Of a stretch of 45,454 bases of DNA, positions 1 to 41,639 are shown in pieces. A model generated the notes under the pieces. That model was not told the origin of the DNA, made no database searches, and worked only from the letters and a program-made list of their open reading frames with translations. Source of the DNA: a virus; the IMG/VR virus record IMGVR_UViG_3300037493_003531, positions 1 to 45,454 of that record, one strand, 5' to 3'. How positions within the stretch are numbered: position 1 is the stretch's first letter; each line of letters starts with the position of its first letter. The position numbers and the translations under genes are program-made.

Positions 1-305
1 ACCGACTTGGCGGATACCAGTCGTTCGATCGTGCCATTCATCATCAGCGAATAGTTGTCGTCGATGTGGAATGGATGGCACTGCTTCTTGCCGATCTTAC
101 CGCTAGTCGAGTAGCGGAAGTGGCAAGTGTAGCCTCGGTCGATCTTGGTCATGATGTCCCATGCCCGTTGCTCGGACATGGTGCGGACGATCTCTCCGGT
201 GTCATGGTAGAAGATGCCGAAGCCGTCTTGGTTCTGGTGCAGGGCGTTGTCGATGATCTCTTCGGAGACTTCACGGCACAGCGGGTTGTGTATGATTAAG
301 CACAT
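1..305 (-). CDS. Class II glutamine amidotransferase-like protein, 3' end missing
   Basis: Only the first 101 codons are inside the window. The protein begins Met-Cys, so removing Met would expose the nucleophilic Cys used by Ntn-type (class II) glutamine amidotransferases. NQDGFGIFY (residues 25-33), HFRYSTSG (62-69), CHPF (76-79) and MMNGTI (88-93) match the conserved glutamine-site blocks of that fold. Members hydrolyse glutamine to release ammonia, or act as amide hydrolases. It lies 33 nt downstream of the amidoligase gene on the same strand, so the pair probably works together. The fold assignment is good; the substrate is unknown. The start is ATG at 305. Confidence 0.8.
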   Translation of the reverse strand, partial: MCLIIHNPLCREVSEEIIDNALHQNQDGFGIFYHDTGEIVRTMSEQRAWDIMTKIDRGYTCHFRYSTSGKIGKKQCHPFHIDDNYSLMMNGTIERLVSAKS

Positions 306-338: not shown

Positions 339-1607
339 CTATCGGGTGTATTCGTTGATGTCGGGATGAACGATTCCATCCAGCATCCAGATGCGGAAGT
401 GGCGAGCCAGTCGCAACGCCTTGGCGTAACGCTTGCGGTCGCCGTTGTATGCTTCCTTGAGTAGGATGTCGCGGCTCTCGCGGACGAAGCGATTGAAACT
501 CCAGTTCTCCTCCATTGCACGGCAAGTGATGGCAATCAGACGAGCACGGCGGAGCAGATGCTTACCATTGATGACACGACTAGGCAAGCGCAACTCAATC
601 CCGAAAGACTTGCAACGCACGGGACTGTATTTGATTCCTCTATCCTCGATCTTCTTGTCCTCACGGCAGTAGGTATTGTTGAGACGCTTGCGGAAGAGTG
701 CATACCACAGCGGGGCATACACCTTGAAAGCGGAGAGTGCTTCGCGGGGTGTTCTGTTCTGCCAACTGATGTTGATGTGTCCTCCACATGTCTTATCGCA
801 AGGCTCGGCAAGGACGTCACTCGCATCATCCACATGCGCCTCGAACATCTCCATGACGAGGGGGTCAAGCAAGTCGTAACAGTTTGTCACACCTTCAACT
901 CCGCAGGAACCGTCAAGCTCCCATCCGGCGAAGAGGTCACGCTCCCCGATCTCCCCACCTTCATAGCAGTAACCGAAGATACTGGTCTTCTCAACCTCGA
1001 ACCCGATCAGGAACGGGGATGACCCCCGATACTTCTCCTCGTCCGGCGAGCTATGGTATCTACAGATCGCCCCCTTGTCTGGCTCTGGTTGGCAGTCGTC
1101 GCATTCCTCTTCGCCCCCATGCACCCACTGGTCGGTCGCGTCGCAGTGGTGGCACTCGTCGCTCGGCCAGTATTCATCATCAGCGTCACAATACACATAG
1201 TCGCTATCACCTTCGATGAAGTATGTGCCGTGCCCGTCTGTGCGTATGTTTTCGTCCTCGTAATAGTAGTGCCCATCACCGTGGATGTAGATGGTGTCGT
1301 GACTGACGTGCCACTCGCCGTCCTCGCAATGGGTGCACTCCAAGTCAACGTAAAACGCACCCCTTGACTCAATCCAGTGGACGTCTCCGTCCTCTTCTGC
1401 TTCCTCTAGCTGCTCGGGGGTGTAGTAACCCCAAGTGGCGTAGCTGGAATAAGCTGGCTCGCTGTTCATTCCAACGCGGGTACACTCTGCCCGCTCCGCC
1501 GTTGACCCATCCACCGTGATGACGGGGTCTTCGAAGGTTAGGGTGAGGCGTGGGTTTCTCGCTTCCTCAAGAATGAGGGCGAACACATTGTTGTCATTGT
1601 TATTCAT
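339..1607 (-). CDS. Amidoligase_2-like COOH-NH2 ligase with N-terminal zinc-binding segment
   Basis: A 422-residue protein. The C-terminal half has the signature blocks of phage amidoligases (ATP-grasp/glutamine-synthetase-related COOH-NH2 ligases): GFEVE (202-206), WELDGSCGVEG (229-239), CGGHINIS (274-281) and IELRLPSR (337-344). Such enzymes are predicted to join a carboxylate to an amine using ATP. The N-terminal half is acidic and aromatic-rich with Cys pairs C91/C94, C152/C155 and C169/C172, probably a zinc ribbon for target binding. An in-frame ATG at 1640 exists, but it lies inside a leader hairpin shared with neighbouring genes; the start at 1607 matches the equivalent position in those leaders. 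It is followed at once by the amidotransferase gene. The substrate cannot be read from sequence. Confidence 0.78.
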   Translation of the reverse strand: MNNNDNNVFALILEEARNPRLTLTFEDPVITVDGSTAERAECTRVGMNSEPAYSSYATWGYYTPEQLEEAEEDGDVHWIESRGAFYVDLECTHCEDGEWHVSHDTIYIHGDGHYYYEDENIRTDGHGTYFIEGDSDYVYCDADDEYWPSDECHHCDATDQWVHGGEEECDDCQPEPDKGAICRYHSSPDEEKYRGSSPFLIGFEVEKTSIFGYCYEGGEIGERDLFAGWELDGSCGVEGVTNCYDLLDPLVMEMFEAHVDDASDVLAEPCDKTCGGHINISWQNRTPREALSAFKVYAPLWYALFRKRLNNTYCREDKKIEDRGIKYSPVRCKSFGIELRLPSRVINGKHLLRRARLIAITCRAMEENWSFNRFVRESRDILLKEAYNGDRKRYAKALRLARHFRIWMLDGIVHPDINEYTR

Positions 1608-1634
1608 ATTTCTATTTTTCTTTTTGTTGTGCGT

Positions 1635-1701
1635 GTTCATACCATATGAACCGCTTGCTGACCTTATTCGGTTGACCGAATAAGATCAGGCAGCGAATCA
1701 C
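1635..1701 (-). repeat. Palindromic leader element, copy A
   Basis: This lies between the stop at 1702 and the amidoligase start. Read on the minus strand it holds a 14-bp stem with a 4-nt TCAA loop (CTGATCTTATTCGG against CCGAATAAGGTCAG, one G-U pair), flanked by CGCT/AGCG, then a second hairpin GTTCATATGGTATGAAC (1635-1651). The plus strand would carry an A-C mismatch where the minus-strand RNA has G-U, which favours an RNA role on the minus strand. It is near-identical to copies B and D. Confidence 0.85.
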
Positions 1702-2244
1702 TTAGATAGCATTACGAGCAGCAACCATGACAGCATAAGCAGCCTTAGCCTCAAACTCAGCAGCAACATAAGCACCAGCAGCAGCTTCAGCAGCAGCTTC
1801 AGCAGCATCAGCATCAGCAGCAGCATCACGAGCAACATCAGCAGCAGCATCACGAGCATCAACAGCTCTATTGCATCTAGCAACAGCCGCAGCATAAGCT
1901 GCATAAGCTGTACCACGAGCAGCATCAGCGCGAGCAGTCAGGTCAACGGGTGCAGGATTCAGGAAGACAACCTTACCACAGTAATCCGTGCCGCTGAAGT
2001 AATGCACCTCATGCCCATGAACCTCCAGCCTATCGGCGTCGGGGATAGATGAACCAAATCCTGTCCTCAGCTCGGGGCAGCGGAGGAAGAGCGCACTATC
2101 TTCGCGTCCGTTCCATTCGTCGAGGCAGGCTTCGGTTACGGGGGAGTGCACATCATCGCGAGAAGCGTCCATGACCAGCCCGCCTTTGGCGAGGTGGGCG
2201 TTAATCATGTCGGCGAGTTCTAGTATTGTTATTTCAGTATTCAT
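1702..2244 (-). CDS. Unknown protein with alanine-rich helical tail
   Basis: A 180-residue protein with no recognised family. Residues 1-105 look globular and acidic. Residues 106-180 are extremely alanine-rich with regularly spaced Asp, Arg and Glu (for example RDAAADVARDAAADADAAE), predicting one long helix or coiled coil encoded by GCA/GCT-rich simple sequence. The start ATG at 2244 overlaps the TGA of a 12-codon upstream reading frame. It sits directly upstream of the amidoligase in the same leftward unit, so a role as partner or substrate is possible, but that is inference only. Confidence 0.6.
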   Translation of the reverse strand: MNTEITILELADMINAHLAKGGLVMDASRDDVHSPVTEACLDEWNGREDSALFLRCPELRTGFGSSIPDADRLEVHGHEVHYFSGTDYCGKVVFLNPAPVDLTARADAARGTAYAAYAAAVARCNRAVDARDAAADVARDAAADADAAEAAAEAAAGAYVAAEFEAKAAYAVMVAARNAI

Positions 2245-2279
2245 ATTTCTTTTCTATTTGTTTTGTCTTGCGTGTTCAT
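2241..2279 (-). CDS. Possible 12-residue leader peptide before the gene at 1702-2244
   Basis: The frame MNTQDKTNRKEI starts inside the second hairpin of the leader repeat and ends in TGA, overlapping the downstream ATG as ATGA. The same peptide and overlap recur at 2620-2658. In copy A the equivalent stretch is 2 nt shorter and runs in frame into the amidoligase. No Shine-Dalgarno motif precedes it, so translation is unproven. Confidence 0.35.
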   Translation of the reverse strand: MNTQDKTNRKEI

Positions 2280-2340
2280 ACCATATGAACCGCTTGCTGA
2301 CCTTATTCGGTTGACCGAATAAGATCAGGCAGCGAATCAC
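2274..2340 (-). repeat. Palindromic leader element, copy B
   Basis: This is nearly identical to copy A over its full length: a 14-bp stem with TCAA loop, then the GTTCATATGGTATGAAC hairpin (2274-2290), then an A-rich leader into the start at 2244. It fills the junction between the genes at 2342-2623 and 1702-2244. Confidence 0.85.
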
Positions 2341-2341
2341 T

Positions 2342-2623
2342 TTAGATAGCAGCAGCAGCAGCGAGAGGCGGGAGTAACCTCAACTCGTCACGGTAGAACG
2401 ATATGAACCAAGCTCTTGCGGGCTCTCGATATGAGAAGTGAGCGTCCACAAAGTAAGCACCATGATGTCGGCTACAGGTGATACCTCGGAGCGCCGTCGC
2501 CCACTCTTCGGGTGTGAAGTAACTCTTCAAGTCATCCAGTGAGGGGTTAGGTGCGCGGACCAGCATCCGCATAACGGATATTAGTCTGCCTTTGATTGGT
2601 TTCGTGTTCATATTCATACTCAT
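2342..2623 (-). CDS. Unknown 93-residue protein
   Basis: No family is recognised. The start at 2623 (MSMNMNTKP) is chosen because it follows the conserved leader sequence AGAAAAGAAAT used by the next gene; later in-frame Met codons are alternatives. The middle contains an amphipathic helix candidate (PSLDDLKSYFTPEEWATAL) followed by a His/aromatic-rich stretch, and the C-terminus is a run of alanines. It belongs to the leftward cluster feeding the amidoligase. Confidence 0.55.
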   Translation of the reverse strand: MSMNMNTKPIKGRLISVMRMLVRAPNPSLDDLKSYFTPEEWATALRGITCSRHHGAYFVDAHFSYREPARAWFISFYRDELRLLPPLAAAAAI

Positions 2624-2658
2624 ATTTCTTTTCTATTTGTTTTGTCTTGCGTGTTCAT
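2620..2658 (-). CDS. Possible 12-residue leader peptide before the gene at 2342-2623
   Basis: The same MNTQDKTNRKEI frame as at 2241-2279, again ending in TGA that overlaps the downstream ATG. Keeping both the peptide and the ATGA coupling in two copies is suggestive, but the DNA copies are so alike that recent duplication would also explain it. Confidence 0.35.
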   Translation of the reverse strand: MNTQDKTNRKEI

Positions 2659-2718
2659 ACCATATGAACCGCTTGCTGCCCTTATTCAGCTAACCGAATA
2701 AGAGCAGACAGCGAATCA
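2653..2718 (-). repeat. Palindromic leader element, copy C (with compensatory changes)
   Basis: The stem here reads CTGCTCTTATTCGG against CTGAATAAGGGCAG on the minus strand. Compared with copies A, B and D, an A-U pair is replaced by C-G on both arms, and two G-U pairs are tolerated that would be A-C mismatches on the plus strand. The loop changes from TCAA to TTAG. This is the most informative copy for RNA structure. It includes the TGA stop of the 46-residue gene at 2716. Confidence 0.85.
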
Positions 2719-2856
2719 CTTAGCGGGCTTCCACATCACGACGTCCCGATACAATACGGGAGTCGGCGTTGCCAGCTTCAAGAGCACACCCCTCGATGCG
2801 AGGTATGCAAGGGCGGCGTCCACTGATGGCGTGCTGGTGGTTGCGTCAATGTTCAT
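2716..2856 (-). CDS. Unknown 46-residue protein
   Basis: The ATG at 2856 overlaps the TGA of the preceding gene as ATGA, which sets the start and implies translational coupling. A longer in-frame extension to 2976 exists but would lie entirely inside the upstream gene and is Arg/Cys-rich like an antisense artefact. The product contains VDAALAYLASRGVLLKLATP, a short helix then strand. No function is recognised. Confidence 0.5.
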   Translation of the reverse strand: MNIDATTSTPSVDAALAYLASRGVLLKLATPTPVLYRDVVMWKPAK

Positions 2857-3083
2857 GGCAGCACCTCCATGTTGGCGTTGGCGAAGGCGTCTGCAAGGGA
2901 GACGCCGAAGGGTTGACGGGTTGCGACGCTGGACACGATTGGCGTGTTCTTCGTGATGGCAATCTCTTGCCAGCAACCTTTGAGAAAGCCCATGTCTGTA
3001 ATGACACGAGGCTTGACGATGTTTTGCTCGATGAGCGCAAAGAATTGCGCGTGCTGTGCTGTTCTGTTCTTTTTATTTTTCAT
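2853..3083 (-). CDS. Unknown 76-residue protein
   Basis: The start MKNKKNRTAQ at 3083 follows an AC-rich leader (ACTAAAACAA) without a Shine-Dalgarno motif. It is coupled to the 46-residue gene by a 4-nt overlap. The N-terminus is basic and the remainder mixed alpha/beta. It does not resemble any family I can name. Confidence 0.5.
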   Translation of the reverse strand: MKNKKNRTAQHAQFFALIEQNIVKPRVITDMGFLKGCWQEIAITKNTPIVSSVATRQPFGVSLADAFANANMEVLP

Positions 3084-3096
3084 TTGTTTTAGTGCG

Positions 3097-3155
3097 GGTT
3101 ATGAACCGCTTGCTGACCTTATTCGGTTGACCGAATAAGATCAGGCAGCGAATCA
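3097..3155 (-). repeat. Palindromic leader element, copy D
   Basis: It has the same long stem and TCAA loop as copies A and B, but the second hairpin (GTTCATATGGTATGAAC) is replaced by a short divergent stretch, so no upstream leader frame is present. It overlaps the TGA stop (3153-3155) of the small membrane protein gene and precedes the start at 3083. Confidence 0.8.
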
Positions 3156-3266
3156 TCTTGTGAGGTTGTGCAACAGCACAACGGCGAGGATGAAGATCAG
3201 TCCGAAGAGAACGGACAGGAGGATACCCAACCACGTGGGCGGTTCTGGTGGTAGTGTGATGGTCAT
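3153..3266 (-). CDS. Small single-span membrane protein (37 aa)
   Basis: The reading frame encodes 37 residues: a short proline-rich start (MTITLPPEPPT), one hydrophobic segment of about 23 residues (roughly WLGILLSVLFG through IFILAVVLLH), and a short HNLTR tail. It ends inside leader copy D and fits exactly between copies D and E, which supports it as a real gene. It could affect the host membrane, but no family is recognised. Confidence 0.55.
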   Translation of the reverse strand: MTITLPPEPPTWLGILLSVLFGLIFILAVVLLHNLTR

Positions 3267-3283
3267 GATGTTTGTATGGTGAT

Positions 3284-3322
3284 TCCTGTATCCGGTAAGG
3301 GTTGGACTTGCAGGATACAGGA
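3284..3322. repeat. Inverted repeat of the CCTGTATCC family
   Basis: TCCTGTATCC (3284-3293) and its exact reverse complement GGATACAGGA (3313-3322) form a 10-bp stem with a 19-nt loop, just upstream of the small membrane protein gene on the minus strand. The same words recur elsewhere in the window. Confidence 0.6.
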
Positions 3323-3324
3323 TT

Positions 3325-3346
3325 CTTATTCGGTTGACGGAATAAG
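3325..3346 (-). repeat. Short palindromic element, copy E
   Basis: CTTATTC and GAATAAG flank a CGTCAACC centre on the minus strand. This is the core of the leader palindrome without the outer stem. It lies immediately after the stop of the gene at 3349-3702. Confidence 0.6.
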
Positions 3347-3348
3347 GA

Positions 3349-3702
3349 TTACATGGCGGCGAGGAGCTTAATCAGCTTCTTGAGTTCCTTGGCAGGAAGA
3401 GCCTTTGCCATCTTCGCAACCGCTTCCGCCGTGTTCTTGTCGGGCGTAGTCTTCTTGCGACCGCCGCCCGCTGCCCTAGCACGAAAGCCCGCTTCAACGC
3501 AGACTTCCATTGCCCAACGCTTGTCATAGCCATTGGCTACAGCGAAGGCAATAAAGCCAGCGCGAAACTCCATAGGTTTCATGATATGCTCTTGCGTCTC
3601 CCATAGGGTTAGAAGAGCGGACATTAAGGTTACCTCCGCCTTGTGGACTGAAGCCATAAGGGGAAGGAGTGATGCGTAGTTTACTTTCTTGTTTGTTTTC
3701 AT
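3349..3702 (-). CDS. Unknown basic protein (117 aa), first gene of the leftward cluster
   Basis: The N-terminal 70 residues are helical. The centre has a basic patch (RARAAGGGRKKTTPDKN), and the last 30 residues form an amphipathic Lys/Ala helix (MAKALPAKELKKLIKLLAAM). A DNA-binding or regulatory role is plausible but unsupported by a recognised motif. The start at 3702 follows a GTAA tandem repeat leader. It is the promoter-proximal gene of the minus-strand block at 1-3.7 kb. Confidence 0.55.
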   Translation of the reverse strand: MKTNKKVNYASLLPLMASVHKAEVTLMSALLTLWETQEHIMKPMEFRAGFIAFAVANGYDKRWAMEVCVEAGFRARAAGGGRKKTTPDKNTAEAVAKMAKALPAKELKKLIKLLAAM

Positions 3703-3743
3703 ATGCTTACTTACTTACTTGTTTGTTATGGTAGGAGAGGATG

Positions 3744-3765
3744 CTTATTCGGTTGACTGAATAAG
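3744..3765 (-). repeat. Short palindromic element, copy F, upstream of the leftward cluster
   Basis: CTTATTC and GAATAAG arms surround AGTCAACC on the minus strand. It precedes the first leftward gene, so at this position it cannot be a terminator of a preceding leftward gene. An operator or leader role fits better here. Confidence 0.55.
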
Positions 3766-3766
3766 A

Positions 3767-3961
3767 AGGACACCATCCCCTTACATAGATATGGGAATAG
3801 ACCCATACAGCCCCCTCCCCCCTAGCCCGCCCTGCACCCTGTATCCTGTGCCCTGATTCCCCGTCCCGATACCGGATTCAGGATACAGGCTACGGGTGGG
3901 GTGAGCGTTTTTGTGGGGACACGGGTAGCGATAGCTACATCCCTGAGAAAAATAATTTTAC
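3767..3961. promoter_or_regulatory. Divergent intergenic region with CCTGTATCC inverted repeats
   Basis: About 200 bp separate the leftward and rightward units. It contains TATGGG/CCCATA (spacer 6), a C-rich run, and CCTGTATCCTG with its exact complement CAGGATACAGG further right (11 bp), enclosing CCCGTCCCGATACCGG. No open frame of note is present. It probably holds the promoters for both directions, but no clear minus-strand promoter could be fixed. Confidence 0.45.
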
Positions 3962-4494: not shown

Positions 4495-4624
4495 CCCGCC
4501 CACCGTCTCCCTAATCAGGGGTAGGACGTACGAATTTGTCGAGGGCGATCTGGTCGGGCGAGGACAGAAATTCCACAGCGATTGGTCTTACCGCCGAGCG
4601 ATAATTGTGGGGAGCGGGGAGTAA
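4388..4624 (+). CDS. Small lipoprotein, Rz1-like o-spanin candidate
   Basis: A 78-residue protein beginning MKLINSLLLAMLLQSCG, a short signal peptide with lipobox LQSC, so the mature lipoprotein would start at Cys16 or nearby. The mature part (PPTVSLIRGRTYEFVEGDL through HSDWSYRRAII) resembles small phage lipoproteins near lysis genes. It overlaps the preceding coiled-coil gene by 107 nt in a different frame. A TTG at 4382 is an alternative start, but the ATG gives the better signal peptide. Outer-membrane fusion at lysis is inferred from the arrangement. Confidence 0.6.
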   Translation: MKLINSLLLAMLLQSCGWSVSRRDSRANANESALYDPPTVSLIRGRTYEFVEGDLVGRGQKFHSDWSYRRAIIVGSGE

Positions 4625-4657
4625 TTCCCGCCGCTAAACTGTAAGTCAGAAATAATT
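4621..4657 (+). repeat. 37-bp direct repeat, left copy
   Basis: It begins GTAATTCCCGCCGCTAAACT and ends AGAAATAATT. It differs at one position (C/T) from the copy at 5510-5546. The first bases include the TAA stop of the lipoprotein gene. Together the copies bracket the gene at 4702-5499. Confidence 0.85.
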
Positions 4658-4666
4658 AAAGGTGCC

Positions 4667-5499: not shown

Positions 5500-5509
5500 A
5501 CTTCGGAGA

Positions 5510-5546
5510 GTAATTCCCGTCGCTAAACTGTAAGTCAGAAATAATT
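5510..5546 (+). repeat. 37-bp direct repeat, right copy
   Basis: 36 of 37 positions match the copy at 4621-4657. It lies 10 bp after the stop of the bracketed gene and just before a tiny frame at 5560. Confidence 0.85.
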
Positions 5547-5559
5547 TGAGGGGGGTTTT

Positions 5560-5782: not shown

Positions 5783-6367
5783 ATGACCGACAACCGAGAG
5801 ATGCCGCCGAACGCCGACACCGCGAAATTGCGTCGGCGCGGCGATGTGCGCGAGGACGGTTTTGTGTTCGTCCGATACCACCCGAACTACAAAAACGGCG
5901 AGTATTGGATTTCGCCTGACCGCCACGCCCAAGCCCATCCTGTATCCCCCACGCGTATCCGAAACCGGAATCAGGATACAGGGATCATGAACCTGACGAA
6001 GTCTCCTCACCTCCGGATACGGGACTACGGACCAAGGTACAATTCACGGAAGCGGAAATTAACTCAGAAAGAATTTGACAACCTTCCGTATGGACCGAAT
6101 ACTGAGCCCGCTATGACCACTATCGAAAACATCACCATCCTTCCCAACTACTCGAAATACGGTATCACGCCTGACGGATTCGTCTTCCGCGTGCTTCCCG
6201 CCAGTAGAGGCCGTACCGCTGGACAGCGCCACCGTGTGACCCCCGTCATCCATCCGAGGGGGCATCAGTGGTGCGTGCAGATCACCAACGACGAGGGCGT
6301 TCGCAAGCGGGTGCCGATTAAGAAGTTGATGCAAGAGGTTTACGGTAACTCCGAAACAATTTCTTGA
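5783..6367 (+). CDS. NUMOD/HNH-associated-like DNA-binding protein
   Basis: A 194-residue basic protein with two similar domains: residues ~15-45 (RRGDVREDGFVFVRY, then GEYWIS) and ~115-190 (YSKYGITPDGFVFRVLP, PRGHQWCVQITND, VPIKKLMQEVYG). The second resembles the modules that accompany HNH homing endonucleases (an ITPDG.VF strand pair plus a C-terminal helix). No HNH catalytic triad is evident, so it may be a nuclease-derived DNA-binding protein. A TTG at 5771 is an alternative start. The gene contains CCTGTATCC and GGATACAGG words of the dispersed family. Confidence 0.5.
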   Translation: MTDNREMPPNADTAKLRRRGDVREDGFVFVRYHPNYKNGEYWISPDRHAQAHPVSPTRIRNRNQDTGIMNLTKSPHLRIRDYGPRYNSRKRKLTQKEFDNLPYGPNTEPAMTTIENITILPNYSKYGITPDGFVFRVLPASRGRTAGQRHRVTPVIHPRGHQWCVQITNDEGVRKRVPIKKLMQEVYGNSETIS

Positions 6368-27239: not shown

Positions 27240-29012
27240 TTATTTGGAGTAGAGGTCGCATATGTGTCCTTCAGCGGCGACCGGAATGTCGGGAATCCAC
27301 GTCGGCGGTGTGTGCATGATCTCAAGGATCTTTGCAAGAGCTTCTTCAGCTTGCGCTTCCGGCACTTCGCAAACCATTTCGTCGTGGACGTGAAGGATGA
27401 CGGGAAATCCCGCTGCGTCCACTCGCAGCATCATGTCTGAGAAGATGTCTCGCGCTAGTCCCTGTGACATGTTTTCGGTAAGGATGCCACCCCACAACTG
27501 GAAGTCGCGGAGTTGGCCGTTGCGAACGATCTTTCCAATATGGCGGAACCGATTGAGCGAGCCAGCTTCTTTCATCCGCTTGATCTTCCCGTAGCGCAAG
27601 GCACGACCGGACGGAAGTCTAAGCTCGAAGGGTTCGCCGACCGCACAGGCAGTTGCCATATTCTGATCTAGTGAACGCCAGAACTTTGGCACTGTGGGCA
27701 TACGTTCGCGATACAGCTTAACTGCCTTCTCAGCCTCCTCTGTGGACAGGCCACTGAAGGCGGAGAACTTGGTAGCCCCCATGCCATAGCCGCAGCCTAG
27801 AACTATTGATTTCACCTTGTGTCGAAGGTTCTTGTCATACTCCTTCAAGGGGCCGTTAGCAGGATCGTGCAAGCCTAGCAGCACACCGAACGCATGGTAG
27901 ATGTCGTCCGACTCGCGGATAAGGTCGAGAGCTTTTCTGTCTTCAGCCAGCCAGCACAGGGTGCGGACTTCGATCTGCGACAAGTCAGCAACAATCAGCT
28001 TGTATCCGTCCTTCGGCCTAATCATGTGGCGGAAGTTTACGCCGAACATTTCTTCTCTCGGGAGATTTTGCAGGTTTAGGTTACCGCCACTGCCACTAAA
28101 ACGTGCCGTTGGGTTAGCGCCACAGTACATCAAGCCACCGTAGTATCTGCCGTCAGGCATTGTTCCGCCATCAAATGCCTCCAGCTTACGGAGGAGAGCA
28201 TTGATGCGTCGGTAGTTCTGCACGGCACGCGCCCAAGGGCACGCGTCTTGGAATGCGGCAAACCATTTGTCTGCTTCTTCATTACCAGCGGCGAGCGAAG
28301 CCGGAGGTACGATACCTTGGGTTCGGCACTGGTTGTTGAAGGCTTTACGCGACAGCGGTGTGCTGTCCCCAACCCAAGGGATAGACTGCTCTGCATTAAA
28401 CAGCTCGGTCCGAATCTGTTCGAGGTTCTTCTTGAGTAGCGTCGTATCAATCGGGATACCCCTCTGCCCAACCTTTCGATTGAGCTCACTGATGTCTCGT
28501 TCCGTTTGAGGCCACCCGTCAGACAGTTCCTGCCACAAGCGTAAGCAAAGCTCGGAGTCCTTAATGGCGTACTCGGTAACTTCTTTTTTGAAGTCGTCGG
28601 TCATCAAGTTCCACTGCCTACCCTTCATGTTGTCACGAGTAGTCTTGCTGATTTCCAAGCCGAATACCGCTGCTGATGCGTTTTTCAGAGATCGTGGGAG
28701 GCCAAGGAACGCTGTCATGTCGGCTGTGCAGTGCCACTCAGCGGGGCTGCATGGACTGAACCAACCGACCTCAACCCCGTAAAGATACAGGCTTTCGTCG
28801 AATGAAGCGTTGTGGCTTAGTACTACCTGATCGTTCAGCATAGACCAGTCAAACTCTCTCGGACATCCAGCGTAAACAAAACCATCATCGCCTACTACTG
28901 TTACCATGTAGGCGTCGAATTGAGGGTGTGAAAAGTAACCCCTCGGTCCCAATGTTGTGATGGAACAGTCACTGTCGTAATACGACTCAAAGTCAATAGC
29001 GTAAGTTATCAT
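27240..29012 (-). CDS. Family A DNA polymerase with 3'-5' exonuclease
   Basis: A 590-residue protein. Proofreading motifs: DFES (D7, E9), SHNASFDE (66-73) and YAIKDSE (148-154). Polymerase motifs: A, VADLSQIEVR (341-350); B, RHKVKSIVLGCGYG (397-410); C, HVHDE (541-545). There is no 5'-3' exonuclease domain, as in other phage replicases. All catalytic residues are present. It is followed by the primase-helicase in the same leftward operon. Confidence 0.95.
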   Translation of the reverse strand: MITYAIDFESYYDSDCSITTLGPRGYFSHPQFDAYMVTVVGDDGFVYAGCPREFDWSMLNDQVVLSHNASFDESLYLYGVEVGWFSPCSPAEWHCTADMTAFLGLPRSLKNASAAVFGLEISKTTRDNMKGRQWNLMTDDFKKEVTEYAIKDSELCLRLWQELSDGWPQTERDISELNRKVGQRGIPIDTTLLKKNLEQIRTELFNAEQSIPWVGDSTPLSRKAFNNQCRTQGIVPPASLAAGNEEADKWFAAFQDACPWARAVQNYRRINALLRKLEAFDGGTMPDGRYYGGLMYCGANPTARFSGSGGNLNLQNLPREEMFGVNFRHMIRPKDGYKLIVADLSQIEVRTLCWLAEDRKALDLIRESDDIYHAFGVLLGLHDPANGPLKEYDKNLRHKVKSIVLGCGYGMGATKFSAFSGLSTEEAEKAVKLYRERMPTVPKFWRSLDQNMATACAVGEPFELRLPSGRALRYGKIKRMKEAGSLNRFRHIGKIVRNGQLRDFQLWGGILTENMSQGLARDIFSDMMLRVDAAGFPVILHVHDEMVCEVPEAQAEEALAKILEIMHTPPTWIPDIPVAAEGHICDLYSK

Positions 29013-29032
29013 ATGTTATGGGCATAAAGAAA

Positions 29033-29069
29033 CCGCGCACGATACACTGGTCTAGCGTATCGTGCGCGG
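29033..29069 (-). terminator. Terminator or attenuator before the polymerase gene
   Basis: CCGCGCACGATAC and GTATCGTGCGCGG form a perfect 13-bp stem with an 11-nt loop. On the minus strand TTTCTTTAT follows, as in an intrinsic terminator. It separates the upstream genes from the polymerase and primase genes, so those would depend on readthrough or a nearby promoter. Confidence 0.75.
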
Positions 29070-29080
29070 TAAGTGTGTTG

Positions 29081-39833: not shown

Positions 39834-41639
39834 ATGGGCCGACCAAGAAAATACGATCCCGACAAGACTTCAACCTCCGTGCTGGAGCCACGGATAGATT
39901 CCACCACAAACAAGATGGACGTTGGGGGCTTCCTGATTCCTGTAACCAATACCATTACCGCTTTGCTGTGGGGGTTTGCTAACCACCCGTCCAACAGGGC
40001 AAAGGAGTTTTATTTCTGGCGCGTGGCGGATTTGCTCTGGAACAGGGACGACCTGCCGGAACACATGTTCCTCAAGCATCCGTGGGCGGAGCAGATCATC
40101 CGTGAGTGCATAGATAACAAATATCTTGCCATCGGCGGCGCAGCGTCGAGCGGTAAGAGTCACACCCTTGCTGGCTACGGTATCATCACATGGCTGGCCA
40201 GACCGCGTGACACCCTTGTCCTGATGACATCGACCACCTTGCGTGAGGCGCGAAAACGGATCTGGGGTTCGGTAATCTCTCTACTGTCCGTCATTGACGG
40301 TGCCCCAATCAATATTCGGGATTCAATCGGCAGCGCCAATTACATCGACGAACACGGCCAGACGTTCGACAGAGCAGGTCTTTCGCTGATTGCGGCGGAG
40401 AAAAGCCGCACGCGGGAGGCCACCGGTAAATTTATCGGTCTTAAGCAGAAGCATGTGTTGTTGATTGGTGACGAGCTCGGCGAGCTTAGTGAGTCCATTC
40501 AACAGACCGCGCTCGCCAACTTGAGTAAGAACCCAAGGTTTGATTTTGTGGGGCTGTCCAATCCGGCGAGCAGGTTTGACTCTTTCGGTATCTGGTCTAC
40601 ACCGAAGGGCGGCTGGGAGTCCGTCACGCCCGACGTAGATGACGAGTGGACTACAAAGTGGGGCGGCAAATACATCCGACTGGACGGCGAACGCAGCCCC
40701 AACGTAGCAGCAGGTTACACCGTGTATCCCTTCCTGCCAACCGCCGAGAAGATCGCGGAGGACAAAGCCCTGTTGGGTGAGAGTAGTCGCGCATACATGC
40801 GAATGGTTCGGGCTGTGTTCTTTGACAGTGACGAAGCCGAGGGCATCTACGGCGAGTCCGAGATACTCAAGGCGAACGGCATGAAGAGATCCGAGTTCGT
40901 TGGTCCTACTGCGCTAATAGCGGGGGTCGATCCAGCGTTCACCAATGGCGGAGACAGGACAATTATGTATACCGCTAGGGTTGGGCAGTTCGCGGACGGG
41001 CAATACGGCATGCAGTTTGAGGACTACATAAGCCTCAACGATGATGCGACCAACAAGGCAGTTCCGAGGACGTATCAGATCGTCCACCAAATCCGAGACA
41101 ACTGTATACGGTTAGGGATCAAACCAGAAAACGTTGCTATTGACTCAACTGGAGCGGGCTCACCGTTCTGTGACGTTCTGGCGGGCGAGTGGTCGGATCA
41201 ATTTCTGCGCGTGCAGTTTGGCGGGAAGGCTTCCGACAGGCGGGTCAGCATGAACAGCAAGCTCACCGGAGAGGAGCTCTACACCAACCGCGTGTCGGAG
41301 CTGTGGTTCGTTGGCAAAGAGTTCCTACGCACCAAACAGATAACGGGGATCTGTGATGTGCTCGCGAAGGAGATGTGCATCAGGCGCTACGAGATGGTCA
41401 AATCCGGTAACCTGCGCGTCAAAGTCGAAACCAAAGCCGAACTCAAACAGCGGATGGGGCAGTCGCCGGACATCGCCGACGCCGCGTTCATCGCGCTGGA
41501 TCTGGCAAGACAGCGGCACGGGCTCGTCGCGGTAGACGCACCGAACAAAACGGAGATGGGCATGTTCGGGCGAGCGATGCCAAGAACGCTACGAGACCTT
41601 GACGTAGTCAGCAGGTCAAAACACGCGTATCTGGACTGA
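39834..41639 (+). CDS. terL: Terminase large subunit
   Basis: A 601-residue packaging motor. ATPase motifs: Walker A GGAASSGKS (101-109) and Walker B VLLIGDE (208-214). Nuclease motifs: D366 in LIAGVDPAFTNGGD and D437 in VAIDSTGAGSPF, with a further acidic motif near SPDIADAAFIAL. All key residues are intact. It lies divergent to the small subunit. Confidence 0.95.
   Translation: MGRPRKYDPDKTSTSVLEPRIDSTTNKMDVGGFLIPVTNTITALLWGFANHPSNRAKEFYFWRVADLLWNRDDLPEHMFLKHPWAEQIIRECIDNKYLAIGGAASSGKSHTLAGYGIITWLARPRDTLVLMTSTTLREARKRIWGSVISLLSVIDGAPINIRDSIGSANYIDEHGQTFDRAGLSLIAAEKSRTREATGKFIGLKQKHVLLIGDELGELSESIQQTALANLSKNPRFDFVGLSNPASRFDSFGIWSTPKGGWESVTPDVDDEWTTKWGGKYIRLDGERSPNVAAGYTVYPFLPTAEKIAEDKALLGESSRAYMRMVRAVFFDSDEAEGIYGESEILKANGMKRSEFVGPTALIAGVDPAFTNGGDRTIMYTARVGQFADGQYGMQFEDYISLNDDATNKAVPRTYQIVHQIRDNCIRLGIKPENVAIDSTGAGSPFCDVLAGEWSDQFLRVQFGGKASDRRVSMNSKLTGEELYTNRVSELWFVGKEFLRTKQITGICDVLAKEMCIRRYEMVKSGNLRVKVETKAELKQRMGQSPDIADAAFIALDLARQRHGLVAVDAPNKTEMGMFGRAMPRTLRDLDVVSRSKHAYLD

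What the first reader, a model, noticed from the sequence alone, without database searches (positions are those of the whole stretch)
1635..3765. Repeated palindromic RNA element at gene junctions, with compensatory base changes
Four long copies (A-D) and two short ones (E, F) sit at the junctions of the leftward genes. In copy C an A-U pair becomes C-G on both arms, and the imperfect pairs are G-U on the minus-strand RNA but A-C on the plus strand. That supports a selected RNA stem on the transcribed strand. None is followed by a T run, so it is not an ordinary terminator. It could be a processing site, a protein-binding leader or an attenuator controlling each gene separately.
Basis: partly seen in the sequence, partly recalled or inferred. 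Interest (0 to 1): 0.7.

Follow-up and report, generated by a model that had tools for sequence, protein, structure and literature searches.

The report
Phage gene-junction hairpins that can refold
Between the genes of one operon in an uncultured aquatic phage family sits a repeated RNA hairpin whose paired bases change together across relatives; its base can also pair into a second hairpin in front of the next gene, which suggests that each junction is cut or refolded so that every gene has its own message.

Summary
Copies A-D lie at window 1641-1702, 2280-2341, 2659-2719 and 3096-3159, short copies E and F at 3319-3350 and 3733-3780, all read from the minus strand. A-D fold 7-9 standard deviations below shuffled sequence. 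Related IMG/VR phages carry the same element at the same kind of junction. In 23 distinct long copies all 391 pair cells are standard on the transcribed strand, five pairs change on both sides, and wobble pairs are G-U there, never A-C. Two near-identical genomes differ in the 22-nt core by one compensated swap, at two junctions.

New points. (1) The 3' lower strand of the hairpin also pairs further downstream, forming a second hairpin before the next start codon; this sharing is found in all 31 long copies examined, and at one position the shared base is G, U or A with partners following. (2) The element often supplies the UGA stop of the upstream gene. (3) Shared gene blocks between relatives end at its copies. 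It is not a terminator, attC site or Rfam family.

Best reading: an intercistronic processing and stabilising element. RNA-level selection about 0.9; this particular mechanism about 0.4. No transcript data exist.

The parts
1641..1702 (-). Copy A, hairpin 1, between the 180-aa gene and the 433-aa gene; hairpin 2 follows at about 1628-1653
   Evidence: searches (z -7.9; 88.2 bits), for hairpin 2
2280..2341 (-). Copy B, hairpin 1, between the 93-aa gene and the 180-aa gene; hairpin 2 follows at about 2267-2292
   Evidence: z -7.9; 87.8 bits
2659..2719 (-). Copy C, hairpin 1, with the A-U to C-G compensated pair; hairpin 2 follows at about 2646-2671; upstream gene stops at the element's TGA (2716-2718)
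   Evidence: z -6.9; 86.3 bits
3096..3159 (-). Copy D, hairpin 1, with the AACCCGC form of hairpin 2; the 37-aa membrane-protein gene stops at the element's TGA (3156-3158)
   Evidence: searches (z -8.7; 85.6 bits), sequence
3319..3350 (-). Short copy E (core only, C-C mismatch), followed by a conserved second hairpin CCTGTATCC...GGATACAGG at 3284-3325
   Evidence: 18.8-20.8 bits; z -4.7
3733..3780 (-). Short copy F in the leader of the first leftward gene, with its own outer stem and an A-C mismatch in the core
   Evidence: 22.2 bits; z -2.7
3349..3702 (-). First leftward gene (117 aa, unknown), preceded by F
2853..3083 (-). 76-aa gene, preceded by D
2342..2623 (-). 93-aa gene, preceded by C
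1702..2244 (-). 180-aa alanine-rich gene, preceded by B
339..1640 (-). 433-aa gene preceded by A; amidoligase-like by motif only (no Pfam or PHROG hit); conserved across relatives

Best explanation
The element is a cis-acting RNA processing and stabilising module, copied in front of the genes of the leftward operon. In the polycistronic transcript, hairpin 1 (a 13-14 bp upper stem with a 4-5 nt loop, a small internal loop whose 3' side is GCA, and a 4-10 bp lower stem) forms directly after the stop codon of the upstream gene. A double-strand-specific or structure-specific endonuclease (host RNase III, or an unidentified phage or host enzyme) cuts at or near the internal loop. The upper stem then stays as a 3' cap on the upstream message. 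The freed lower strand (GCG and variants) refolds with the downstream CGC into hairpin 2, which becomes a 5' cap on the next gene's message, just before an A-rich, unstructured start region. Shown: position, co-orientation, structure, compensatory changes, strand preference, the shared strand, and copies marking gene-exchange boundaries. Inferred: transcription as one RNA, cleavage, the cleaving enzyme, and the stabilising effect.
For: 100% of 391 pair cells standard, 5 double-changed pairs, 26 G-U cells and no A-C cells on the transcribed strand; slid controls at 31-60% paired with no or one double-changed pair. Same-junction comparison L008 versus L011: the core differs only by a compensated swap, at two junctions. 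Sense strand more stable than antisense in 27 of 31 copies. Hairpin 2 forms in all 26 distinct downstream fragments, mean z -2.8, with 23 of 26 matched by at most about 5% of shuffles. 4-8 bases pair in both states in all 31 copies, and the two states are close in energy (mean -31.6 and -28.7 kcal/mol); the shared position is G, U or A with partners following on both sides. Swapping strands between types costs 1.9-2.5 kcal/mol against 0.1-0.7 within types. An element also precedes the first gene (F), as expected if it serves the downstream message. No T run.
Against: No transcript ends, and neither the host nor the nuclease is known. All copies in one genome resemble each other and may have spread by gene conversion, so the counts are not independent events. 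E and F are weak, and have mismatches on the transcribed strand. The two-state pairing is equally what a switch without cleavage would show. Hairpin 2 is weak in some divergent copies (L119_7019, L120: z about -0.5). Several relatives have other sequences, not this element, at these junctions.
Confidence: 0.4

Rival explanations
1. A two-state RNA switch without cleavage: a ribosome stopping at the UGA at the foot of hairpin 1 opens the lower stem, so that hairpin 2 forms and sets translation of the next gene (translational coupling or insulation).
For: UGA at a fixed place 12-16 nt before the core is the upstream stop in 19 of 31 long copies; the shared strand and near-equal energies are the classic layout of alternative structures.
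Against: Hairpin 2 usually does not cover the start codon or a visible ribosome site; F has no upstream gene translated into it; E differs; in some copies the upstream stop lies well before the hairpin.
Confidence: 0.22
2. An RNA operator: a phage or host protein binds the hairpin and represses or activates each gene separately.
For: The core sequence is largely shared within one genome and changes in concert between genomes (all CCG..CGG in L011, mostly CTTAGTTAG in L119), as expected if a trans-acting partner co-varies.
Against: Core and loop are free to change as long as pairing is kept, even within one genome (L119, L008, L009); no candidate binding protein identified; within-genome likeness is also explained by recombination between copies.
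Confidence: 0.15
3. DNA-level module boundary: the repeats are recombination joints that let genes be exchanged as cassettes, and the palindrome matters as DNA.
For: Blocks of similarity between relatives end at the copies: window/L010 at 1701/5780, window/L007 at 1703/513, L008/L011 at 898/11994; gene content between copies differs.
Against: A DNA palindrome predicts no strand preference, yet wobble pairs and stability favour the transcribed strand; copies are co-oriented; no attC-type pair of boxes in any copy. Exchange at the copies can be a by-product of repeated sequence.
Confidence: 0.13
4. Ordinary intrinsic terminators or chance palindromes.
For: Stable hairpins after stop codons.
Against: No T run; terminator scan finds none at the copies; shuffles exclude chance.
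Confidence: 0.02

Closest known systems
[quoted passage not shown]
   Same: Repeated inverted repeats, nearly all in one orientation, upstream of gene starts, restricted to non-structural genes, consensus differing between subclusters; function unknown.
   Different: ESAS is two 17-bp repeats tied to a 13-bp GGGATAGGAGCCC box next to the start; here there is no such box, the hairpin follows the stop codon at a distance from the start, and a second hairpin shares a strand with the first. No sequence match to any of 50,697 phage records.
RNase III processing sites of phage T7 early mRNA (from general knowledge; no paper found in the library)
   Same: Long hairpins with an internal loop at junctions and in the leader of an early operon; cleavage would leave a 3' hairpin.
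   Different: Cleavage not shown here; the strand-sharing second hairpin is not, to my knowledge, part of the T7 sites.
Plastid intercistronic expression element (PMC2230500)
   Same: A small stem-loop between genes that makes stable single-gene messages from an operon.
   Different: Plastid, tested experimentally, no repeated copies per operon described there, no alternative hairpin.
Integron attC sites
   Same: Imperfect, co-oriented palindromes at the ends of exchangeable genes.
   Different: No RYYYAAC...GTTRRRY pair in any copy.

Membership tests
Intrinsic terminator | Run of T directly after the stem | tested here: not met
   Longest T run 2 in all copies; no T-rich window after the stems; no terminator-like site at the copies
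Integron attC site | RYYYAAC and GTTRRRY boxes at the ends of the palindrome | tested here: not met
   No pair in A-F on either strand
ESAS/SAS of cluster K phages | Inverted repeats upstream of gene starts in one orientation | tested here: met
ESAS/SAS of cluster K phages | Associated 13-bp SAS box GGGATAGGAGCCC | tested here: not met
   Not present in the leaders shown (read directly)
RNase III processing site | Stem of about two helical turns, often with an internal loop | tested here: met
   13-14 bp upper stem, internal loop, 4-10 bp lower stem
RNase III processing site | Cleavage at the site, dependent on RNase III | not testable with these tools
   No RNA data, host unknown
Known Rfam family (riboswitch, leader, ribozyme) | Covariance-model match above the gathering score | tested here: not met
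   0 matches in the window; permissive search gave only chance hits far below gathering scores

The most novel reading that the evidence does not exclude
This would be a compact element of a kind not described.
Probability: 0.3. Interest if true: 0.75.

Novelty: new variant of a known kind. Interest (0 to 1): 0.6.

Why it matters
It gives a well-supported, undescribed structured RNA in an uncultured phage family, with a concrete and cheap test. If the refolding-after-cleavage model holds, it shows how a phage can turn one operon transcript into separately protected messages and offers a portable operon separator. The comparison also bears on the old puzzle of start-associated repeats in cluster K phages, and links repeated junction RNAs to modular gene exchange.

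Tried and rejected
Rfam: no match. Cultured phages and plasmids: no phage match; plasmid hits at E 2-6 are chance. Bacterial and archaeal genomes: five exact pattern matches in unrelated organisms, none a convincing model hit, the best at E 0.03, so no host or prophage. Scan for the divergent foot sequence: of 28 loci only the two known relatives match the model; the other 26 serve as negatives. Translational bypassing (UGA plus tetraloop hairpin, as in T4 gene 60) was considered and dropped: I saw no matched take-off and landing codons. My first attempt to constrain the two states in ViennaRNA failed and is void; redone by folding the pieces. The offset of hairpin 2 from the 'cut' follows from where I placed the cut and is not evidence for a cut site.

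Full report
What is there. The window is a 45,454-base virus record of a tailed phage: a terminase large subunit at 39834-41639 and a DNA polymerase at 27240-29012, no close cultured relative, GC 52%. From 3765 down to 1 a set of genes runs leftward. A near-palindrome sits in front of six of them. Four long copies share about 60-105 nt including leader sequence; two short ones share only the 22-nt core. There are no further copies in the window.

Structure. On the transcribed (minus) strand, copies A-D fold into a hairpin of about -32 kcal/mol, z -6.9 to -8.7. It has an upper stem CUGAUCUUAUUCGG/CCGAAUAAGGUCAG with loop UCAA, an internal loop, and a lower stem UCGCU/AGCGG. In 23 distinct long copies from the window and six related records, the GCA on the 3' side of the internal loop is invariant. 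The plus strand also folds, but less well (-25.5 for copy A).

Relatives. Exact and degenerate pattern scans, plus the terminase and neighbour proteins, brought in related IMG/VR records. The model built from 23 long copies finds the element in 8 of 50 related records searched whole, including two divergent ones not used to build it, at E about 1e-10 (again). Many of the 50 are fragments without this region. In one of these two (L119) the core is mostly CTTAGTTAG/CTAACTAAG instead of CTTATTC../..GAATAAG. A degenerate copy precedes the homologous 433-aa gene in L123.

Selection on RNA pairing. All 391 pair cells are standard; five pairs change on both sides; slid controls drop to 31-60% paired with no or one such pair. 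Wobble pairs on the transcribed strand make up 26 cells, and A-C, which would be wobble on the other strand, none. Two genomes 97.4% identical over 899 nt differ in the core by one mirrored G/C swap, at each of two junctions. The sense strand is more stable in 27 of 31 copies. Caveat: copies inside a genome are alike, so events are fewer than cells. E and F do not follow the rule: F has A-C and E has C-C on the transcribed strand.

The second hairpin. Downstream of the long stem a second hairpin forms in all 26 distinct fragments (mean z -2.8). Its 5' strand is the 3' lower strand of the first hairpin: 4-8 bases pair in both structures in all 31 copies, so the full forms exclude each other, and their energies are close. 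At the shared central position the base is G, U or A; the upstream partner is C, A or U accordingly, and the downstream partner follows (C or U, A, U) with one exception, in L120. Swapping partners between these types destabilises both hairpins more than swapping within types. I take this as evidence that both states are used.

Placement. In 19 of 31 long copies the longest upstream reading frame ends in a UGA at the foot of hairpin 1, 12-16 nt before the core; in others a stop lies slightly upstream (frames called mechanically). The leader after hairpin 2 is A-rich (for example AAACAAATAGAAATATG) without an evident Shine-Dalgarno sequence. F stands before the first gene, in the leader, so the element goes with gene starts rather than gene ends.

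Modules. Similarity blocks between relatives stop at the copies (window 1701/L010 5780; window 1703/L007 513; L008 898/L011 11994), with different genes beyond. So the copies mark, and may help, gene exchange.

Mechanism. Taken together: a double-stranded region with an invariant internal-loop strand, directly after a stop codon, whose opening would free a strand to form a hairpin at the head of the next message. Cleavage is the simplest event that makes sense of both structures and of F; a ribosome-driven switch is the main rival. No RNA data are available, so cleavage is inferred.

Known kinds. The anatomy resembles ESAS repeats of cluster K mycobacteriophages (PMC3203893, read; PMC12699233), whose function is also unknown and whose SAS box is absent here. 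The proposed mode of action resembles T7 RNase III sites (general knowledge) and the plastid intercistronic expression element (PMC2230500). It is not an intrinsic terminator, attC site or Rfam family.

Noticed in passing
L123 10412-10428, 10766-10782, 11016-11032, 11749-11765, 12501-12517; L127 10250-10266; L131 9457-9473: Other relatives carry a different 17-nt palindrome GTCAAGA-NNN-TCTTGAC at the same junctions, sometimes inside coding sequence and in the other orientation.
   Followed up: partly
L123 12521-12555; L127 10271-10302; L131 10896-10928: After that palindrome a conserved leader (A/T)TGCGTAGCTT(A/T)CCGCA..AG.TGAAGC, with ATGCG/CGCAT against TTGCG/CGCAA; the loop GCTT could pair with AAGC downstream as a pseudoknot.
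   Followed up: no
window 3284-3325: After E a hairpin with a conserved loop (CCTGTATCCTGCAAGTCCAACCCTTACAGGATACAGG and variants) precedes the 37-aa membrane-protein gene in many relatives, with compensated stem changes.
   Followed up: partly
window 3284-3325, 3837-3889, 5937-5982: CCTG(T/A)ATCC-type repeats recur in intergenic regions of this phage and its relatives.
   Followed up: no
window 1-299 and 339-1640 (minus): Neighbouring genes look like a class II glutamine amidotransferase (MCLIIHNP start) and an amidoligase-like protein (HINIS, GIELRLPSR), judged by motif only; Pfam gives no hit for the second.
   Followed up: partly
window 4615-4662 and 5504-5551: A 48-nt direct repeat, 92% identical, in the region between the leftward and rightward genes.
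   Followed up: no
L144 4173-4252: A distant GC-rich relative has two tandem hairpins before the homologous gene, the second with 22 pairs; their bases appear to share a CAG strand as in the window element.
   Followed up: partly
window 29032-29070 (minus): A 17-bp hairpin just upstream of the DNA polymerase gene; a similar 18-bp hairpin is in L122 6705-6745.
   Followed up: no
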